Source: a virus. From it: a stretch of 35,041 nucleotides of DNA. The position numbers and the translations under genes were made by a program. Of this stretch, positions 3,721 to 17,291 are shown one piece after another; positions within the stretch are counted from its first letter, which is position 1; every line of letters begins with the position of its first letter. Under the pieces are notes generated by a model. That model saw only the letters and a program-made list of their open reading frames with translations. It had not been told where the DNA came from and did no database searches. Where the stretch lies: positions 1 to 35,041 of IMG/VR virus record IMGVR_UViG_3300042465_001324, one strand, 5' to 3'.

Positions 3721-4569
3721 TTAATCTCCACAGAAGCAAGGGATTGCTTCTTCGTTAGGGTCAACATTTCCGAACATATCCGTTTGTTGCAATGCAAAAT
3801 CGTACATTTCCTTATAACTCGGTCTGTCCTTTCTGAACTTTGCTCCATCGCCATATGTCTTATTTGACGAATTAGCGTGGGCTTCCATCTTCATCCACCA
3901 CAATGCCCTTTCAGGCTTTTCAGCAATGAGTGACATGATTTGATGAGCAGGTTTGAGGAAGCACAGATCACAATTTCCATGCATTGTGACTCCGTTCATG
4001 TTTGGCAGTCCCAAATCAAAAGACTGGCTTCTCCAGAATGCTCCGACAGTTTCTTTGGTAACTCCTGCCGTAACCAATGGAGTCCTGCTCCTGTCCATTT
4101 TGGCGGCTCTACGCATCTCATCAGCACGAATGCCGACCCAATCAGAATTCTCGTCATGTTGCCAACCGATTGACTTCAAATAGTGGTTTATCACTCTGAT
4201 TTTCAGTTTTGCGGTGCAAATTCTGGCAACAGGGTTTGGCAGATATGGCGAGCCGTTTTGGTCAATCAGTTCAAAAAAGGGTTCTCCCTCACGAGAAGCA
4301 GTCTCAAAAGTTACCCTTTTCCACCTGTTTGACGGAACTTCATCGTACTTGTACTCAAGCCAATGGATTTCTACGCCCCAATTTTTTGCACAATCGTGGA
4401 CAAACTGCAAAGTGGCTTCTTCTTCCTTGCCAGTATTGGCAAAACAGACAATTGCATCAGATGGCAAAGTCATATTGTTTGCTTCTAATATGCGATAAAG
4501 CATATAAGCCGATGTCCTACCACCAGAGAAACTTATGCAAGTAGGTTCATTTATCAGAAATGGGTTCAT
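3721..4569 (-). CDS. Phosphoadenosine phosphosulfate reductase-like PP-loop protein
   Basis: 282 residues. An N-terminal PP-loop, FSGGRTS (residues 14-20), is the ATP-pyrophosphate motif of the PAPS reductase/adenine nucleotide alpha-hydrolase superfamily. CTAKLK (118-123), GIRADEMRR (147-155), a CxxC pair at 200-203 and a C-terminal CFCGD follow the pattern of phage members of this family. The biochemical role of these phage proteins is unsettled: sulfur transfer, nucleotide activation and DNA modification are all possible. It lies between a replication protein and a RuvC-like nuclease, so a DNA-related role is more likely than sulfate assimilation. No dnd-type partners are visible. Confidence 0.8.
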   Translation of the reverse strand: MNPFLINEPTCISFSGGRTSAYMLYRILEANNMTLPSDAIVCFANTGKEEEATLQFVHDCAKNWGVEIHWLEYKYDEVPSNRWKRVTFETASREGEPFFELIDQNGSPYLPNPVARICTAKLKIRVINHYLKSIGWQHDENSDWVGIRADEMRRAAKMDRSRTPLVTAGVTKETVGAFWRSQSFDLGLPNMNGVTMHGNCDLCFLKPAHQIMSLIAEKPERALWWMKMEAHANSSNKTYGDGAKFRKDRPSYKEMYDFALQQTDMFGNVDPNEEAIPCFCGD

Positions 4570-8253: not shown

Positions 8254-8356
8254 CGATATTGCCCTAATGCACAGTGATCTAACACTGTTGGCAATGTGGG
8301 CAGTAAACAAAGAAGCAATAGATATTTTTAACGATGCAATAGGAGTCAAGGAATGA
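8159..8356 (+). CDS. Hypothetical small protein
   Basis: 65 residues. The start is supported by AGGAGTGAAAA directly before ATG 8159, even though this gives a 95-bp overlap with the preceding gene. The C-terminal half, with MWAVNKEAIDIFNDAIG, is helical. Its stop overlaps the ATG of the Sak-like gene, so it belongs to the recombination operon. Confidence 0.55.
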   Translation: MLDYSTILMRIERTTKSLEEKCLHKRFVGFNNDIALMHSDLTLLAMWAVNKEAIDIFNDAIGVKE

Positions 8357-8913
8357 ATCAAGAACAGGTGTTAAGTCTTCTCGGTAAGAATGTCAATGAA
8401 CATACTGAGAAGAAAGGAAATTTGACATATCTTTCATGGGCGTGGGCATGGGCAGAAGCACTCAAAGCAGACCCCGATGCAAGTTACAAGATTGAGATGT
8501 TTGGTGACAAGTGTTTCATGGACATAAACGGCACTGCAATGGTGTTCGTAACAGTCACTATGTTTGGCAAACCAATGACTTGCCAGCTACCAGTGATGGA
8601 CTACAAAAACAAAGCAATCCCTAATCCTGACGCATTTGCAGTCAATACCGCCATCATGCGTTGCATGACTAAGGCTTTGTCTCTGCATGGTTTGGGTCTG
8701 TATATCTATGCTGGAGAAGACTTGCCTGAGAGCGAGGGTTCAGACATAGATGTAGGAATGATGATTGACCATTTAGCGGCTATTGAGGCGGCATCCACCA
8801 TTGAGGAGTTAAAAGATGTTTACACCACTGCTTACAGTGCTTGCGGTTCTGATAAGAATTGGCAGAAAAAAGTAATTGATGCAAAAGAAAAGCGTAAAGG
8901 AGCATTGAAATGA
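8353..8913 (+). CDS. Sak/DUF1071-type single-strand annealing protein
   Basis: 186 residues. LTYLSWAWAWAEAL (24-37), a central beta region with VFVTVTMFGKPM (64-75), and NTAIMRCMTKALSLHGLGLY with following IYAGEDLP (98-125) are diagnostic of the DUF1071/Sak branch of the Rad52-like annealing proteins. These coat and anneal complementary single strands in phage recombination. The gene is followed with a 4-bp overlap by a YqaJ-type exonuclease and then an SSB-like gene. This is the standard two-component recombination module (exonuclease plus annealer), analogous to lambda Exo/Beta. RBS AGGAGTCAAGGA. Confidence 0.88.
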   Translation: MNQEQVLSLLGKNVNEHTEKKGNLTYLSWAWAWAEALKADPDASYKIEMFGDKCFMDINGTAMVFVTVTMFGKPMTCQLPVMDYKNKAIPNPDAFAVNTAIMRCMTKALSLHGLGLYIYAGEDLPESEGSDIDVGMMIDHLAAIEAASTIEELKDVYTTAYSACGSDKNWQKKVIDAKEKRKGALK

Positions 8914-9530
8914 GTGAAGTTGAACAAGGTACACCAGAATGGTTTGCACAGCGTTGTGGCAAAGCCACTGCTTCTCGTATCTCTGACATTGTTGCCAAGA
9001 CAAAGACAGGCTACAGCACCAGTAGAGCAAACTACATGGCACAGTTGGTAGTCGAGCGCATGACTAACCAAATAGGTGAGTCATACTCAAATGCCGCAAT
9101 GGAGTGGGGTGTCGAGAACGAACCCTTTGCCAGAGCCGCATACGAGGTTAAAACAGGCAATACAGTCGATCAGGTAGGTGCTATTGACCATCCACGAATT
9201 GCCTTGTCTGCCGCCTCTCCTGATGGTCTGATTGGGGACGATGGATGCTTAGAGATTAAGTGTCCTAACACCTCAACCCATATCGACACTATTCTTGGTG
9301 GCGAGCCAGCAAAGAAGTATTACGACCAAATGCAGTGGCAAATGGCGTGTGCAAATAGAAGTTGGTGTGACTTTGTGAGTTTCGACCCACGAATGCCAGC
9401 ACACTTGCAACTGTTTGTTCAAAGAATCGAGCGCAATGACTTATATATTGCAGAACTCGAAAAAGAGGTTGTTCAGTTTCTTGTGGAAGTGGATGACAAA
9501 GTGAAAAAACTCAATGAAATTAAGGTGTAA
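8910..9530 (+). CDS. YqaJ-like viral recombinase / lambda-type exonuclease
   Basis: 206 residues, typical length. The N-terminal [15 protein letters not shown] (10-24) is the YqaJ signature; [11 protein letters not shown] (65-75) and [18 protein letters not shown] (102-119) carry the PD-(D/E)XK core: Asp105, Glu115, Lys117. Family members digest the 5' strand of double-stranded DNA, producing 3' single strands for the annealing protein encoded just upstream. The start overlaps the Sak stop (ATGA). Confidence 0.92.
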
Positions 9531-9532
9531 AT

Positions 9533-9778
9533 ATGGAACAGCGTGATAACTCAGGTGTATTGTTTAAGAACGACAAGAAAGAAAAAGACAATCATCCTGA
9601 CTACAAAGGAAACATTCGAGTTGATGGACAGGACTTTTGGCTGTCAGCATGGATTAAAGAGGGCAAGAACGGCAAGTTCATGGGACTAGCAGTCAGCCCT
9701 AAAGAAGAACAAACAAGCCAGCCTCAAAGCAAGCCTAAAGCTAAGATTGAGGATATGGATTCGGATATACCTTTTTGA
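9533..9778 (+). CDS. Small SSB-like protein with acidic DSDIPF tail
   Basis: 81 residues. A short beta core with [19 protein letters not shown] resembles small phage proteins of the DUF736 type. A Gln/Ser/Pro linker leads to a C-terminal EDMDSDIPF that copies the acidic tip of bacterial single-stranded DNA-binding protein (usually DDDIPF). That tip docks host repair and replication enzymes. It lies 2 bp after the exonuclease gene. It probably binds single strands or recruits host SSB partners to the recombination complex. Confidence 0.7.
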
Positions 9779-9814: not shown

Positions 9815-9833
9815 TAACTTAATAGGAGTGAAT

Positions 9834-10571
9834 ATGATTCATTATCACGGACTTCCAATAACACCAACACCTGTAGCTAACTATGCAGTTCAAGCAGGTC
9901 ATGCGTTTGTTTCGTATGCACACCCAGAACAAATAGCAACCGCCATTGATGTAGCTCAATCTTTTGCTATTGACAATGGGGCATTTAGCGCATGGAAGTC
10001 AGGAGAACCAGTAACAGATTGGCAACCTTTTTACGATTGGGCATTAAATCTTAAAAAAGTACCTTCCTGCGATTTTGCCGTTTTGCCTGATGTTATTGAT
10101 GGCACAGAAGAAGATAACGATGCCTTGTTGCGGGATAACCCATTGCCACTATGGTTTGGCGCACCTGTTTGGCATATGCACGAATCCCTTGAAAGACTTG
10201 AACAATTAGCCAATACCTATGTTCGGGTTTGCATTGGAAGCTCAGGTGAATACGCAACTATTGGGACTTTTCAATGGTGGTCAAAGATGGGGCAAGCAAT
10301 GAGGGTAATTTGCGATGATTTAGGCAGACCATCCTGTAAATTGCATGGTTTACGAATGTTAGACCCTGCAATATTTACAAAACTTCCTTTTTGTTCTGCT
10401 GATTCCACAAATATTGCCCGAAATGTTGGTATGGATGGGAAATGGAGAAACGGAAACTATCCACCACCAACAAAAGAGGCAAGAGCTCAAGTTATGAGAA
10501 GCAGGATTGAGGCGCACAATGCCCCGCCAGTTTGGGGTTTTCATCAAGTTGAACAAGGAGTATTACTATGA
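9834..10571 (+). CDS. DpdA-like TGT-family DNA 7-deazaguanine transglycosylase
   Basis: 245 residues, compact for the tRNA-guanine transglycosylase superfamily but in the range of short phage DpdA proteins. FAIDNGAFSAW carries the candidate nucleophile or acid Asp47; FAVLPDVIDG supplies the second Asp (86). VCIGSSGEYAT, HGLRML (171-176) and SADSTN (188-193) follow the TIM-barrel strand pattern of this family. DpdA enzymes exchange guanine in DNA for a 7-deazaguanine base, protecting the genome against restriction. The next gene is a precursor transporter, which strongly supports the reading. AGGAGTGA precedes ATG 9834; a GTG at 9828 lies inside it. Exact base product unknown. Confidence 0.75.
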   Translation: MIHYHGLPITPTPVANYAVQAGHAFVSYAHPEQIATAIDVAQSFAIDNGAFSAWKSGEPVTDWQPFYDWALNLKKVPSCDFAVLPDVIDGTEEDNDALLRDNPLPLWFGAPVWHMHESLERLEQLANTYVRVCIGSSGEYATIGTFQWWSKMGQAMRVICDDLGRPSCKLHGLRMLDPAIFTKLPFCSADSTNIARNVGMDGKWRNGNYPPPTKEARAQVMRSRIEAHNAPPVWGFHQVEQGVLL

Positions 10572-11047
10572 TTTACGCAGGAATTTACATTGCCGCATTG
10601 GTTGCCGCCAATCTTTTGGTTGCGTGGTTAGGAGTTTGGTTTAGTCTAGTCAATGCTTTTGTCTTGATTGGATTGGACTTATCTTTGAGAGACAAATTGC
10701 ATGATTTATGGGAAGGCGACAAGTTACCTATAAAAATGGGTGGACTTATTGCAACGGCAAGCATTGTTTCTTATGCCATCAATCCAGCTACAGGCATGAT
10801 TGCATTTGCTTCCTTGGCGGCTTTCAGTTTGTCGATGGCAGTTGATTCATTGGTCTATCAATATCTTAAACATAAAGAATGGATGATTCGTGCCAATGGG
10901 TCAAATGTTGCTGGCTCTGCTGTTGATTCAGTAGTTTTTCCAACAATAGCTTTTGGCGGGTTGATGCCTGAAATTGTTGCATTGCAATTTGTAGCAAAAG
11001 TTGGTGGTGGTTTTGTTTGGAGTAAATTTTTAAATAGGAGTGAATGA
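10568..11047 (+). CDS. VUT/YhhQ-family 7-deazapurine precursor transporter
   Basis: 159 residues with about five hydrophobic segments. RANGSNVAGSAVDSVVF (108-124), followed by PTIAFGG, is the hallmark of the VUT (DUF165, YhhQ) family, whose bacterial members import preQ0/preQ1. Length is shorter than the ~220 residues of E. coli YhhQ because the N-terminal part is reduced, as in other phage versions. The start overlaps the dpdA-like stop by 4 bp (ATGA), so both are made together. The phage can thereby raise the precursor pool without carrying biosynthesis genes, none of which was recognised here. Confidence 0.85.
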   Translation: MIYAGIYIAALVAANLLVAWLGVWFSLVNAFVLIGLDLSLRDKLHDLWEGDKLPIKMGGLIATASIVSYAINPATGMIAFASLAAFSLSMAVDSLVYQYLKHKEWMIRANGSNVAGSAVDSVVFPTIAFGGLMPEIVALQFVAKVGGGFVWSKFLNRSE

Positions 11048-11388
11048 TGAGCAAACTTGACGATATACATTTTGGCGGTGAAGTAAAGAAGTTCTTTGAC
11101 TTACCTATCTTTAATCGGGTGAGAACATCTGACCCAACAACCAGTTATGAAGCCGCTGATTCTGCAAAAGACTTGGCTTCTAAACATTTTTGCATGATTG
11201 TGGACGCTTTAAAGGCTCATGGCTCGCTTGGTAAAGATGGAATTGCCCAACATAGTGGGTTAGAGTCTAATCAGGTTGCAAGGCGTTTAAACGAGTTGTC
11301 CAACATGAACTTGATTGAGTTGACAGGACGCACAGTTAAATCAAAATCAGGACGCAACGAGCGTGAATGGAGAGTTACACATGATTGA
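11044..11388 (+). CDS. Winged-helix DNA-binding protein
   Basis: 114 residues. After an N-terminal region containing SDPTTSYEAA, residues ~50-105 form a winged helix: LKAHGSLGKDGIAQHSGL then NQVARRLNELSNMNLIEL and a basic wing. The pattern is that of MarR/ArsR-like or phage replication-associated HTH domains. AGGAGTGA precedes ATG; overlap with the transporter is 4 bp. It could regulate this operon or the late genes, or act in replication. Confidence 0.65.
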   Translation: MMSKLDDIHFGGEVKKFFDLPIFNRVRTSDPTTSYEAADSAKDLASKHFCMIVDALKAHGSLGKDGIAQHSGLESNQVARRLNELSNMNLIELTGRTVKSKSGRNEREWRVTHD

Positions 11389-13780: not shown

Positions 13781-15592
13781 TTATTTTTTCAAAGGAACAT
13801 TTGAGACATCGAACTCATCTTTGGCAGATGGCGCACCAAAAGGATACTGTTGTTTTTCTTCAGCAGTAATGATGTTGGTTAAAGGCTCAACAACAAGTTT
13901 GGTAAATGCTGTTGGAGAGGTTAGCTTTTCTCTTGCTGTTGACAAATACTTGATTGCTTTTGCGCCTTTAGGGTCAAGCAGTGCTTTTGCCAATGTTCTT
14001 TGAGACAAAACAAGTGAACCACCAACAACAGCGGCTGAACCTAAATTTTCGGTAACTTTTTGTTGTTGCTCAGGACTTAGCAAAAAGAAATATCCAGTGC
14101 CAATTGCGGCTGTTGGAGCTAGTACATTCAATCCAGAAGTAACTGTTCTGTAATTCAGTCCGGGCATTGCTTTAGCTTCAACCAGACCCAACTTAGCACC
14201 TTCATTCATTTGCTTGATGGCGGCATCTTGTGGTGTATTGCCAAACAATCTGTTATATGTGTTTGCAAAAGCCTTGTCTTGTTCTAAGTTCTTTGCAAAT
14301 TTCAACATATTTTCAGGTGTGCTTACCATCGCTTCAAGATAACCATATCGCAAAGCATCAACAATTTCATTTGCTGGTTTTTTTGATAACTTAGATGCCG
14401 CAGTCACAGACTTAAATAGGTCAAGAGTTGGTGTTTCTTTTCCAGCCGCAAACAAATATCCACCAACTTCTTCTGCATTCTTTGTTAATGCTTCTTGTAT
14501 TGCGTCAGTTTGAAGACCTTGGATTCCTTGTCTATATGTTTTGGTTACATCTCTATATTTTTTTAGAGTATCACCTTTCAAGGTTGTGTTAGCAGAATAA
14601 TCCATAGCTTGATCGAACTTAGAGATCAATTCACTTATGGTTTGTGAAGCACGACTATCCTTCTCGCTAGAAACACGAGAATTGTATTTATCTCTATTTT
14701 CCGCAAGCCAACGACTTCTTATTTGATGAAGTGTAGGAACATCCAATTCATTTGGTAAAACCTTCATTTCATTAAGAATAGATTTTTGACCGCTTGTTAA
14801 GGCAGAAGGGTTTGCCAACAATTTATCAGCAAAAGATTTAACGCTAAAAGTTGTGACCTTGGATGTTGAATCAGAAAAAATATCTTTATAGATTAAATCT
14901 ACTGAATCACTTAATGATTTTTCACCTTGCTTTATAAAATTTTGTAAGATTTGACCAGATGAAAACTGTGAAGATGTGTTTGTCCTCAAAGCCATGTCAA
15001 GTTCAGGACTTTTTGCAAGAGACTTCAATATATCTTGTGAACCTGTCATCAAGGCATCTTGAATTTCTTTGTCTTTTCTTTTGAAAATATCATATGTTAC
15101 TGGTGTAAGAGTTAAACCCTCTAAAGCAGAAAATAAGTTTGCACCTGTTCTCTGACTTGCTGGCAAGGATGAGTTGTATCTTTGTAAAAATTCTTCTGCG
15201 GCTTTGTTTGCATCAGGCGCATTACTAGAAGTAAAGCCAAGTTTGTCAGCACCAAAACGCAGAACCTTCCCAAGTCCTTTGAGAACAAGATTTCCACCAG
15301 CATCCCATGCGGCTTCTTCAATTCCAGCCTTTGTCGCTAATGACATAGATGGAACTTCACCTTTTGAAATCTGTTCATAAGTCTCACCAGCAAAACCACC
15401 AACACCAGCACCTATTGTGCTAATTGGGAATGGCAATGCTATACCACCAATTAAACCACCCATTTCTTGAGCACCAAAAGCATCTCTTTGACGATACTCA
15501 GGACTCATAATAGATTTGCTCATATCTATATTTGAGGGGGCTGTCTTATCTTCAGCCAGAGGAATATTGCTTACATCAAATTCGTCAGCCAT
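13781..15592 (-). CDS. Putative internal virion / ejection protein (large)
   Basis: About 603 residues from ATG 15592, preceded by GGAGG; ATG 15604 is less well placed. An early Gly-rich hydrophobic stretch (GGLIGGIALPFPISTIGAGVG) suits membrane insertion, followed by mostly helical sequence. A second hydrophobic segment lies near the C-terminus. The motif DEFDVSN[IV]PL occurs at both ends: residues 3-12 and the last dozen residues. It ends a three-gene cluster of long helical proteins after the nozzle gene, the place of T7 gp14-gp16-like ejection proteins. No lytic transglycosylase motif was seen. Confidence 0.6.
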   Translation of the reverse strand: MADEFDVSNIPLAEDKTAPSNIDMSKSIMSPEYRQRDAFGAQEMGGLIGGIALPFPISTIGAGVGGFAGETYEQISKGEVPSMSLATKAGIEEAAWDAGGNLVLKGLGKVLRFGADKLGFTSSNAPDANKAAEEFLQRYNSSLPASQRTGANLFSALEGLTLTPVTYDIFKRKDKEIQDALMTGSQDILKSLAKSPELDMALRTNTSSQFSSGQILQNFIKQGEKSLSDSVDLIYKDIFSDSTSKVTTFSVKSFADKLLANPSALTSGQKSILNEMKVLPNELDVPTLHQIRSRWLAENRDKYNSRVSSEKDSRASQTISELISKFDQAMDYSANTTLKGDTLKKYRDVTKTYRQGIQGLQTDAIQEALTKNAEEVGGYLFAAGKETPTLDLFKSVTAASKLSKKPANEIVDALRYGYLEAMVSTPENMLKFAKNLEQDKAFANTYNRLFGNTPQDAAIKQMNEGAKLGLVEAKAMPGLNYRTVTSGLNVLAPTAAIGTGYFFLLSPEQQQKVTENLGSAAVVGGSLVLSQRTLAKALLDPKGAKAIKYLSTAREKLTSPTAFTKLVVEPLTNIITAEEKQQYPFGAPSAKDEFDVSNVPLKK

Positions 15593-15593
15593 T

Positions 15594-17291
15594 TCAGCCT
15601 CCAATATACAGTTCTTTTTTCAGTTGATTGATTTCAGCATCTTCTTCCGGTGTCTTGGATTTTTTACGCTTGACATTTGTAACCAACTCTTGCAATCGAC
15701 CAAGTTTATTTTGGAACTCAATCCTTTGGTCGGCTTCATTGAATCCCATCAAAGAGTCTTTGTTTGCTTTCTTATAGTCTTTTGCTCTGTTATAGGTGTA
15801 TTCATTTTCTGCAAGATCAACTTTCAGCAAACTAACCAATCTCTTGATTGTTTCTGGTTGTTGCAAAGCATTAGGTGCAGTCTTTTCCAAACTTGCCAAT
15901 TCTTTTGCCGCCAACGAGCCGGGATAATTCTTGACTAATGGGAAGATGTATCTAGTACCCATTGCTTGAATAAGCTGAGTATTTGATGTGGCATTCTTTA
16001 GGTCGCTTCCAACAGGAATTCCAAGAGAAATCAAAGCACCAACAACAGCTTCTTTTCCTTCTGCAAACTTTCCAGTAAATGCGTTTTCCAAAGAAGTTTC
16101 AAGTGTAGCAATATTCCGCTTTGATGCAGTTCCTGCCGCAACAGAAGAACCAAGATTCTTGAAGTTCTCAGCAGTATATTTACCAGTTTCTTCAAACTCT
16201 TTCTTTTGTCCAGCCGCAAGAGCTTTGCCAAGAATACCAAAACCTTCACCAATAGTTTCTTCTAAAGATTTACCTTTAGTAAGTTTTTCAATCCTAGCTT
16301 TTAGTGTGTCATACTCAAATTTATCTTTAATAGGGTCAAGAGTTTTTATCTTATCAACCAAATCAAAGATTTCCTCTTTAGCTAGAGGCTTTGTTTCTTT
16401 AGATGTCAAGCGCAAAAGTTGAGAATTAAACTCTGTATTGAATTCTGGTGTACCTTCTGCACCTTTTTGCAATGCAAGTTTAGTTGCAATTTGAATTTCA
16501 TTTGGAGTTGCTTCTTGTTTTTCTGATTTTTGTAATTGTGTTTTTTCTGACTCCAAGTCTTGATATTCAGGACTATCTTTAGACAAATTTCTCTGTGCCG
16601 CATTTATCTCACGGATGCGAGTGGCAACTTGTAAAGGTTGAGAAATAGATAGTTTGCGTTCTTTATTTGCTTGTGCAATTTTTACCAACGAACTTCTTGC
16701 ATTGTCAGCAATTTTCATAGCCAAATCAGGAGCACTTCTGGCATATTTCTGAGCAACCATTAACTGTTGTTGAGGGTCACTTGGGTCAAGTTCACTCAAG
16801 ATTTGCTGTTGCAAACCAATCATCTGCAATTGAGGGTCTTTACCACCCAAAGCACCACCAAGAACATCACCCAATTGTTGACCACCACGATAGAAGCCAA
16901 ATTGCGCCTGTTGCATAGGTGTTAATTGTGCATAAGTCAAGGCTTCATCTTGCATAGCCCTTTGCCGTCTTTGCATATATTCCATCTCTGCCGCACGAGA
17001 GATTTCAGGGCTAAACATTCCACCCACAATAGATGAAGGTGCTTGTCTTGCGGTTAGTTGTGAATATGGTTCAGCATTCGGTATGAGTTGGGTATTGTCT
17101 AATACTGTTGGCTCAAAAGTAGAAAGATCAGTACTTCTACCCATAATTTCGTCAAACCTTTGTCTTGCCAAATCAGCTTGAGTAATTCTGTTTTGTCCTG
17201 CTTGCAATGTTAAATCGTCAAGATTTTCACTTGCAGTTGAAGGGGATGCAAAAAGTGTATCCATTGGAATTGTGTAGGTAGGGGTTGCCAT
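15594..17291 (-). CDS. Putative internal virion / ejection protein (helical)
   Basis: 565 residues, Gln-, Lys- and Glu-rich, predominantly helical with no signal peptide. It contains LTPMQQAQFGFYRGGQQLGD and following Gly-rich DVLGGALGGKD, a motif style I recall from podoviral internal virion proteins. It lies between the Gly/Ala-rich protein at 17302 and the 603-residue protein at 13781, with gaps of at most 10 bp. It is likely part of the ejectosome that forms a channel for DNA entry. Confidence 0.55.
   Translation of the reverse strand: MATPTYTIPMDTLFASPSTASENLDDLTLQAGQNRITQADLARQRFDEIMGRSTDLSTFEPTVLDNTQLIPNAEPYSQLTARQAPSSIVGGMFSPEISRAAEMEYMQRRQRAMQDEALTYAQLTPMQQAQFGFYRGGQQLGDVLGGALGGKDPQLQMIGLQQQILSELDPSDPQQQLMVAQKYARSAPDLAMKIADNARSSLVKIAQANKERKLSISQPLQVATRIREINAAQRNLSKDSPEYQDLESEKTQLQKSEKQEATPNEIQIATKLALQKGAEGTPEFNTEFNSQLLRLTSKETKPLAKEEIFDLVDKIKTLDPIKDKFEYDTLKARIEKLTKGKSLEETIGEGFGILGKALAAGQKKEFEETGKYTAENFKNLGSSVAAGTASKRNIATLETSLENAFTGKFAEGKEAVVGALISLGIPVGSDLKNATSNTQLIQAMGTRYIFPLVKNYPGSLAAKELASLEKTAPNALQQPETIKRLVSLLKVDLAENEYTYNRAKDYKKANKDSLMGFNEADQRIEFQNKLGRLQELVTNVKRKKSKTPEEDAEINQLKKELYIGG

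What the first reader, a model, noticed from the sequence alone, without database searches (positions are those of the whole stretch)
9834..11047. DpdA-like transglycosylase coupled to a VUT/YhhQ precursor transporter: salvage-type DNA base modification
The TGT-fold gene and the transporter overlap by 4 bp, so they are made together. No QueD/QueE/QueC/FolE-like gene is recognised in the window. Family knowledge: VUT proteins import preQ0/preQ1, and DpdA proteins place 7-deazaguanines in DNA, blocking restriction. Inference: this small phage modifies its DNA wholly from salvaged precursor, with import as the limiting step. Which base is inserted and whether a host enzyme finishes it cannot be read from sequence.
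Basis: partly seen in the sequence, partly recalled or inferred. Interest (0 to 1): 0.75.

Follow-up and report, generated by a model that had tools for sequence, protein, structure and literature searches.

The report
Phage DNA-base swapper with precursor importer
A freshwater phage carries, as two overlapping genes, an enzyme of the kind that swaps guanines in DNA for protective look-alike bases and a small membrane transporter of the kind that imports the precursor; in related phages the transporter is exchanged for a precursor-making enzyme, which makes precursor supply its likely job.

Summary
Window 9834-10571 (+) encodes a 245-aa DpdA-family transglycosylase: same PHROG as the tested phage 9g DpdA, TGT/DpdA fold, invariant D47, D86 and D190. 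Window 10568-11047 (+) encodes a 159-aa VUT/QPTR-type transporter; the genes overlap by 4 bp and both are under purifying selection. No FolE, QueD, QueE, QueC or QueF was found.

The useful result lies in the relatives. Across 143 non-redundant TGTs of this family, neighbours within about 1.5 kb include VUT (56), a lone QueD (10) and an 80-aa family, phrog_37496 (40); 46 have none. Each comes and goes many times on the TGT tree. VUT and QueD never occur together, while the 80-aa protein occurs with either. It folds like archaeosine synthase QueF-Like and keeps the catalytic Cys. So VUT and QueD look like interchangeable precursor supplies, and the 80-aa protein like a tailoring enzyme.

'Wholly from salvage' and 'import is limiting' are not shown: 9 of 12 bacteria carrying TGT+VUT loci have QueC. 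The precursor-uptake idea is published (Hutinet 2019; Vid5 2018; QueT in Dp-1). The swapping cassette and the mini QueF-like partner appear new. No modified base has been measured.

The parts
9824..9828 (+). Shine-Dalgarno-like AGGAG before the TGT/DpdA gene, 5 nt before ATG 9834
   Evidence: read directly
9834..10571 (+). DpdA-family (TGT superfamily) DNA-guanine transglycosylase-like protein, 245 aa; invariant D47, D86, D190, H3/H5, H114, H171, R174
   Evidence: phrog_887 E 9e-70, same PHROG as phage 9g DpdA, Dp-1 and Vid5; hhalign against 9g DpdA prob 96.2, E 2.8e-9; AlphaFold model pLDDT 79, pTM 0.79; VIA-align Z 15.0 to archaeosine TGT 1j2b, 12.9 to DNA preQ0 insertase DpdA 7ui4, 15.1 to Cap10 9ntn; conservation
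10555..10560 (+). Shine-Dalgarno-like AAGGAG for VUT, inside the end of the TGT gene
   Evidence: read directly
10568..11047 (+). short VUT/QPTR-type (queuosine-precursor transporter family) membrane protein, 159 aa; overlaps the TGT gene by 4 bp (ATGA)
   Evidence: Pfam Vut_1 E 5.5e-15, above cut-off; phrog_4899 E 9e-38 over the full length; several hydrophobic segments; dN/dS about 0.1
11044..11388 (+). winged-helix-like small protein, third overlapping gene of the chain; no evidence that it belongs to the modification function
   Evidence: phrog_1123 E 4e-13; 4-bp overlap
8353..9778 (+). genomic setting: Sak annealing protein (8353-8913), YqaJ-type exonuclease (8910-9530), SSB-like protein (9533-9778): an early DNA-metabolism operon
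   Evidence: Pfam and PHROG hits

Best explanation
It is a two-gene 7-deazaguanine DNA-modification cassette. The DpdA-family enzyme exchanges guanines in phage DNA for a 7-deazaguanine base, most likely preQ0, by the TGT base-exchange mechanism, with D190 as nucleophile and D47/D86 at base recognition and acid-base. The co-translated VUT transporter raises the intracellular supply of that base or its precursor by import. The modified DNA would resist host restriction. Shown here: family membership and fold of the TGT, VUT family membership, overlap, conservation of the pair, absence of synthesis genes in the record, and mutually exclusive VUT and QueD beside the same TGT family. Inferred: substrate, DNA target, import direction, protection. 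If VUT is the only partner, as in this record, the expected product is dPreQ0, or dADG if the host or an unknown phage protein oxidises it. Relatives that also carry the 80-aa QueF-like protein are expected to carry dG+ or dPreQ1.
For: TGT is in phrog_887 with the tested phage 9g DpdA; remote homology to 9g DpdA; fold matches archaeosine TGT, TGT and the solved DpdA 7ui4; D47, D86 and D190 invariant. VUT over the Pfam cut-off. Overlapping genes. Pairing in 52 of 52 readable VUT loci and in isolates from several phage groups in both gene orders. All the alternative or added partners are 7-deazaguanine-pathway folds: QueD and a QueF-like T-fold. VUT and QueD never co-occur: 56 against 10 of 143 non-redundant TGTs, hypergeometric 0.006, and 0.002 in the nearest 27-row clade; these figures are not corrected for kinship. 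Minimum changes on the tree: VUT 20, QueD 7, the 80-aa family 18. Purifying selection on both genes.
Against: No chemistry has been measured. The TGT is short (245 aa) and its model is weak at residues 4-14 and 193-209. Foldseek's E-value order favours generic TIM barrels; the TGT family leads only in the second-look alignment. Cap10, a TGT-fold enzyme that modifies protein, is as close as arcTGT. VUT is shorter than cellular YhhQ, matches Vut_1 only over its C-terminal half, and is below the TIGR00697 cut-off. Nine of 12 bacteria with TGT+VUT loci have QueC, so import is not obviously needed. In the mEp021 phage group the same VUT family sits beside a methyltransferase-like gene and there is no phrog_887 gene in the record.
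Confidence: 0.66

Rival explanations
1. The TGT modifies DNA but relies mainly on host-made preQ0. VUT moves a different compound (another purine or vitamin, or queuine) or contributes little, and its neighbourhood reflects co-inheritance.
For: Most hosts of TGT+VUT loci have QueC. Enteric prophage TGTs have no partner. VUT/QPTR members differ in substrate: E. coli preQ0/preQ1, Chlamydia queuine (PMC11130926).
Against: VUT has been gained or lost beside TGT many times (20 minimum changes) and recurs in unrelated phages in both gene orders. It is exchanged with QueD, never joined by it. It is under purifying selection.
Confidence: 0.17
2. The TGT acts on tRNA (host or phage), changing translation rather than DNA; VUT supplies the base for that.
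For: The fold is shared with tRNA TGTs, and the PHROG is named queuine tRNA-ribosyltransferase.
Against: Closest tested homologue is phage 9g DpdA, which did not complement a tgt mutant and modifies DNA (PMC6884629). No Pfam TGT match. The gene lies in a recombination/SSB operon.
Confidence: 0.08
3. The TGT attaches a deazaguanine to a protein, as Cap10 does in type IV CBASS.
For: The Cap10 complex 9ntn is the top VIA-align row, Z 15.1, tied with archaeosine TGT at 15.0 (PMC11996544 abstract).
Against: No QueC-like Cap9 partner in the record. Sequence profile and PHROG tie it to 9g DpdA. Conservation in replication/recombination operons of diverse phages.
Confidence: 0.05
4. The cassette is a decaying or cargo moron with no effect on the phage.
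For: Partners are lost in places, for example L072 with a truncated QueD and L093, L096 and L106 with none.
Against: dN/dS about 0.03-0.05 for TGT and 0.1 for VUT; intact frames and ribosome sites.
Confidence: 0.04

Closest known systems
Phage DpdA systems of 'group 3' (DpdA without preQ0 genes; Hutinet et al. 2019, PMC6884629)
   Same: DpdA-family gene in the same PHROG as 9g DpdA and no synthesis genes in the record; that paper already suggests host preQ0 or uptake, and notes YhhQ homologues in some phages
   Different: The paper found no correlation of YhhQ with any group of phages. Here the short phage VUT is locked to a TGT gene, overlapping it, and alternates with QueD
Pantoea phage Vid5 and Streptococcus phage Dp-1
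   Same: A predicted preQ0/preQ1 transporter (Vid5, PMC6266253) or QueT (Dp-1, overlapping the TGT gene) together with a DpdA
   Different: Both also encode the full FolE/QueD/QueE/QueC set; the window record has none. Dp-1 QueT is annotated as another transporter family and does not match the VUT profile
Bacterial dpd islands with YhhQ (GATOR-GC, PMC11888242)
   Same: DpdA with YhhQ in about 9% of islands, and QueD in 78%
   Different: Those are dpdA-K islands with a restriction operon; here it is a phage two-gene cassette without dpdB or dpdC
Archaeosine synthase QueF-Like (5jyx/5k0p) and bacterial QueF, for the 80-aa partner in relatives
   Same: Same T-fold (Z 12.1, rmsd 1.5 over 80 residues); CP-Cys and HE motif align with QueF
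   Different: About 80 aa, 18% identity, no Pfam QueF hit; lacks the QueF Asp after the Cys. Not in the window

Membership tests
Phage DpdA (DNA 7-deazaguanine transglycosylase) | Homology to a tested phage DpdA (9g) | tested here: met
   Same phrog_887; hhalign prob 96.2, E 2.8e-9; TGT profile hits 9g DpdA with 47 bits
Phage DpdA (DNA 7-deazaguanine transglycosylase) | TGT-superfamily TIM-barrel fold | tested here: met
   Model pLDDT 79; Z 15.0 to arcTGT, 12.9 to DpdA 7ui4, with the TGT family filling most of the top rows. Plain Foldseek ranking was less specific
Phage DpdA (DNA 7-deazaguanine transglycosylase) | Catalytic Asp pair conserved | tested here: met
   D47, D86 and D190 invariant in 34 sequences; D47 and D190 align with Asp in 9g DpdA. 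Roles assigned from knowledge of TGT, not tested
Phage DpdA (DNA 7-deazaguanine transglycosylase) | Inserts a 7-deazaguanine into DNA | not testable with these tools
   Needs LC-MS of virion DNA or an in vitro exchange assay
VUT/QPTR (COG1738, YhhQ) transporter | Pfam Vut_1 above the curated cut-off | tested here: met
   56.5 bits against cut-off 27.2
VUT/QPTR (COG1738, YhhQ) transporter | NCBIfam equivalog 'queuosine precursor transporter' above its cut-off | tested here: not met
   34.6 bits against 50.95. So it is filed as a short phage subfamily of Vut_1, not as YhhQ itself
VUT/QPTR (COG1738, YhhQ) transporter | Transports preQ0 or preQ1 | not testable with these tools
   Needs an uptake or Q-tRNA complementation assay
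Salvage-type (no own synthesis) 7-deazaguanine phage | No FolE, QueD, QueE or QueC in the genome | tested here: inconclusive
   None in the 35,041-bp record, but the record may be incomplete
Salvage-type (no own synthesis) 7-deazaguanine phage | Host cannot supply preQ0 | tested here: inconclusive
   Host of this phage unknown. Of 12 bacterial genomes with TGT+VUT loci, 3 lack a convincing QueC and 9 have it
Bacterial tRNA-guanine transglycosylase (PF01702) | Pfam TGT match | tested here: not met
   No Pfam family at E up to 1
QueF/QueF-L (for the 80-aa partner in relatives) | T-fold with nucleophilic Cys and His-Glu | tested here: met
QueF/QueF-L (for the 80-aa partner in relatives) | Acid/base Asp seven residues after the Cys | tested here: not met
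   That position is not a conserved Asp. So 'works like' is possible, but membership is not claimed

The most novel reading that the evidence does not exclude
DpdA-family phages use a plug-in partner gene beside dpdA to set where the base comes from (VUT import or QueD-boosted synthesis, never both) and how it is finished (an 80-aa QueF-like T-fold enzyme, phrog_37496, present function unknown, which could be the smallest amidino-transferase or nitrile-reductase of this pathway and might act on DNA). The window phage is the import-only form; its 98%-identical relative (L022) has import plus finishing.
Probability: 0.5. Interest if true: 0.68.

Novelty: new variant of a known kind. Interest (0 to 1): 0.56.

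Why it matters
Phages with DpdA but no preQ0 genes were the largest and least predictable group in the published survey. The overlapping VUT and its exchange with QueD give a concrete prediction of where their base comes from. The QueF-like partner predicts which of them carry dPreQ0 and which carry dG+ or dPreQ1. Because sequenced isolates carry VUT+TGT (Lg3, LHE71, Opt-719, RCIP0319, Phc, AB3P2, PEAT2) or QueF-like+TGT (Epa33), the question of phage-driven precursor salvage becomes directly testable in laboratory strains. It also gives a likely function to phrog_37496.

Tried and rejected
Sequence searches of the PDB with the TGT, the VUT, the TGT alignment and the 80-aa alignment gave only chance hits. 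Pfam and NCBIfam have no model for the TGT. PADLOC gave nothing. Terminase and capsid searches did not place the phage or its host; best identities were about 25-35% to unrelated phages. I first took the 79-80 aa ORF between TGT and VUT for a random insert, then found it is a conserved family. The mEp021 neighbour of VUT was checked as a mis-annotated TGT and rejected: it has PPC and ENP motifs, matches phrog_757 (DNA methyltransferase), and does not match the TGT profile. The idea that VUT phages exist because their hosts lack preQ0 synthesis is only weakly supported (3 of 12 against 0 of 21 lack QueC, p 0.04, not corrected for kinship). Host YhhQ and QueD tallies did not sharpen this. The literature search found no description of the VUT/QueD exchange or of phrog_37496 as QueF-like, but the library holds only open-licence papers, and two central ones (Cui 2023, de Crecy-Lagard 2024) could not be read.

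Full report
WHAT IS THERE. The first, 9834-10571 (+), starts at an ATG five bases after AGGAG and encodes 245 aa. The second, 10568-11047 (+), has its own AAGGAG inside the end of the first gene, overlaps it as ATGA and encodes 159 aa. A third gene, a winged-helix-like protein, overlaps the second in the same way at 11044. Upstream are a Sak annealing protein, a YqaJ-type exonuclease and an SSB-like protein, so the pair sits in an early DNA-metabolism operon. The window is a 35,041-bp IMG/VR virus record without end repeats and may not be complete. The PHROG scans show terminase, portal, major head protein, a Holliday junction resolvase and a PAPS-reductase-like protein.

FIRST GENE. It matches phrog_887 (queuine tRNA-ribosyltransferase, E 9e-70) and no Pfam or NCBIfam family. 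Phage 9g DpdA, whose DNA modification has been measured, and the Dp-1 and Vid5 enzymes fall in the same PHROG. A 34-member alignment compared with 9g DpdA gives probability 96.2, E 2.8e-9, pairing IDNGAFSAW with LDSGAFSAY and SADSTN with SCDSSS. Invariant residues include H3, H5, D47, D86, H114, H171, R174 and D190. The AlphaFold model (pLDDT 79, pTM 0.79; weak at 4-14 and 193-209) is a TIM barrel. Plain Foldseek by E-value lists generic barrels first, although archaeosine TGT 1j2b has the best query TM-score shown, 0.58. The VIA-align second look puts Cap10 (Z 15.1), archaeosine TGT (15.0), human TGT (13.5), bacterial TGTs and the DNA preQ0 insertase DpdA 7ui4 (12.9, 14% identity) among the best.

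SECOND GENE. Pfam Vut_1 matches at 56.5 bits (cut-off 27.2), over the C-terminal half; the stricter NCBIfam equivalog for queuosine precursor transporters is below its cut-off. phrog_4899 matches end to end, so this is a complete protein of a short phage subfamily, with several hydrophobic segments. dN/dS against relatives is about 0.03-0.05 for the TGT and about 0.1 for VUT, with dS near saturation in several pairs.

THE PAIR IS REAL AND WIDESPREAD. Searching IMG/VR with VUT alone found 53 loci; 52 have a TGT homologue beside it and the other is cut at the contig end. In some, VUT is 79-91% identical while the TGT is only 34-40% identical, so the partner association has survived replacement of the TGT by a distant relative. 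Isolates show the pair too: Acinetobacter phage AB3P2 in the same order, and Pectobacterium PEAT2, Flyfo Tbat1_6, ECO111 5-P and Drexlerviridae phages Opt-719, Lg3, LHE71 and Phc, and RCIP0319, with VUT first. In AB3P2, PEAT2 and Tbat1_6 no QueD, QueC, radical SAM or FolE gene was found.

EXCHANGEABLE PARTNERS. About thirty close TGT relatives (79-85% identity) lack VUT. Most of those fetched carry, at the same overlapping position, a QueD-like gene (Pfam PTPS E 4e-23 in L067; records; 23 loci). None of the 19 records first tested has QueC or a radical SAM gene, so QueD stands alone, as a booster of the host pathway would. A third partner is an 80-aa family, phrog_37496 of unknown function. 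Across 187 readable loci the first tally was VUT 121, QueD 23, 80-aa 23, 80-aa plus VUT 15, none 5. A wider search added 80-aa plus QueD in one operon (L214) and enteric prophage TGTs with no partner. Adding 80 loci from bacterial genomes and removing redundancy left 143 TGTs: VUT 48, none 46, 80-aa 31, QueD 9, 80-aa+VUT 8, 80-aa+QueD 1. Partners were counted if on the same strand within about 1.5 kb. On the TGT tree (quick search) VUT presence needs at least 20 changes, QueD 7 and the 80-aa protein 18. VUT and QueD never coincide: hypergeometric 0.006 overall and 0.002 in the nearest 27-row clade, not corrected for kinship. The 80-aa protein goes with either. The simplest reading is that VUT and QueD are alternative supplies and the 80-aa protein is a later step.

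THE 80-AA PROTEIN. Its model is excellent (pLDDT 97.4) with the order of strands and helices of a T-fold. The best thirteen Foldseek hits are all chains of archaeosine synthase QueF-Like, E 2e-4 to 2e-3. VIA-align gives Z 12.1, rmsd 1.5 over all 80 residues, ahead of GTP cyclohydrolase I at 10.9 and QueF at 9.3. A profile comparison with QueF proteins aligns its invariant CP-Cys and its HE motif with those of QueF (single comparison, E 1.4e-4, probability 52). In QueF-L the equivalent Cys21 forms the thioimide with preQ0 (PMC5485725). It lacks a conserved Asp where QueF has one, so I claim resemblance, not membership. The window has no copy, but the nearest relative of its TGT, L022 at 98% identity, has the 80-aa gene between TGT and VUT.

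HOW IT MOST LIKELY WORKS. Shown: family, fold, conserved residues, co-translation, pairing and exchange with other 7-deazaguanine genes. Inferred: the TGT exchanges guanine for preQ0 in phage DNA; VUT imports preQ0 (or preQ1) during infection; the base blocks restriction. For this record I predict dPreQ0 or dADG. For relatives with the QueF-like protein I predict dG+ or dPreQ1.

WHAT IS NOT SUPPORTED. That salvage is the only source and that import is limiting. The host is unknown. Of 33 bacterial genomes with TGT loci, QueC is convincing in 9 of 12 with VUT and in all 21 others; the difference has p 0.04 without correction for kinship. Published data also show that a DpdA phage without synthesis genes can have no modified base (Orion) or only traces of dADG (7-11) (PMC6884629).

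PRIOR ART AND NOVELTY. Uptake of precursor by DpdA phages lacking synthesis genes, and YhhQ homologues in phages, were proposed in 2019, with the statement that YhhQ did not correlate with any phage group (PMC6884629). Vid5 has a predicted preQ0/preQ1 transporter with a full pathway (PMC6266253), Dp-1 has QueT overlapping its TGT gene, and bacterial dpd islands sometimes carry YhhQ (PMC11888242). New here, as far as the open literature could be searched, are the tight VUT-TGT lock in synthesis-free phages, the VUT/QueD exchange, and phrog_37496 as a QueF-like partner.

Noticed in passing
L109:4307-4546, L022:4435-4671, L214:1263-1505, L244:2678-3001 (Pseudomonas phage Epa33) and many more: phrog_37496 (unknown function), an 80-aa protein beside phage TGT genes, is predicted to be a mini QueF-Like T-fold protein with an invariant CP-Cys and HE motif.
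   Followed up: yes
L067:10735-11097, L112, L104 and others: QueD-like gene replaces VUT at the overlapping position after TGTs 79-85% identical to the window's; no QueE or QueC in the records.
   Followed up: yes
L116:3902-5169 (Enterobacteria phage mEp021) and L333 (mEp013): A VUT of the same family directly precedes a gene with PPC and ENP motifs (C5-methyltransferase-like, phrog_757, no Pfam hit), with no phrog_887 gene in the mEp021 record. Why a cytosine-methyltransferase-like gene has a VUT partner is unexplained.
   Followed up: partly
L072:3546 onward: QueD cut down to about its first 25 codons after an intact TGT: partner loss caught in the act.
   Followed up: no
L015 (12,737 bp): Two TGT and two VUT copies, one VUT in opposite orientation about 5 kb away; probably an assembly artefact of the contig.
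   Followed up: no
phages record OR850331.1 (1,719 bp, 'Staphylococcus phage SA 1298 Kay'): Contains a TGT with the same identity and coverage as the Salmonella phage ones; the label is doubtful.
   Followed up: no
window 3721-4569 (-): PAPS-reductase-like gene (phrog_424, E 4e-46) beside a Holliday junction resolvase and a primosomal-like protein; its role is unknown, another possible nucleic-acid modification lead.
   Followed up: no
window 13781-17291 (-): Two large adjacent ORFs (607 and 565 aa) with no PHROG hit.
   Followed up: no
L329:2358-3780 (Streptococcus phage Dp-1): QueT (another transporter) overlaps the DpdA gene, parallel to VUT-TGT, although Dp-1 has the whole synthesis pathway.
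   Followed up: partly
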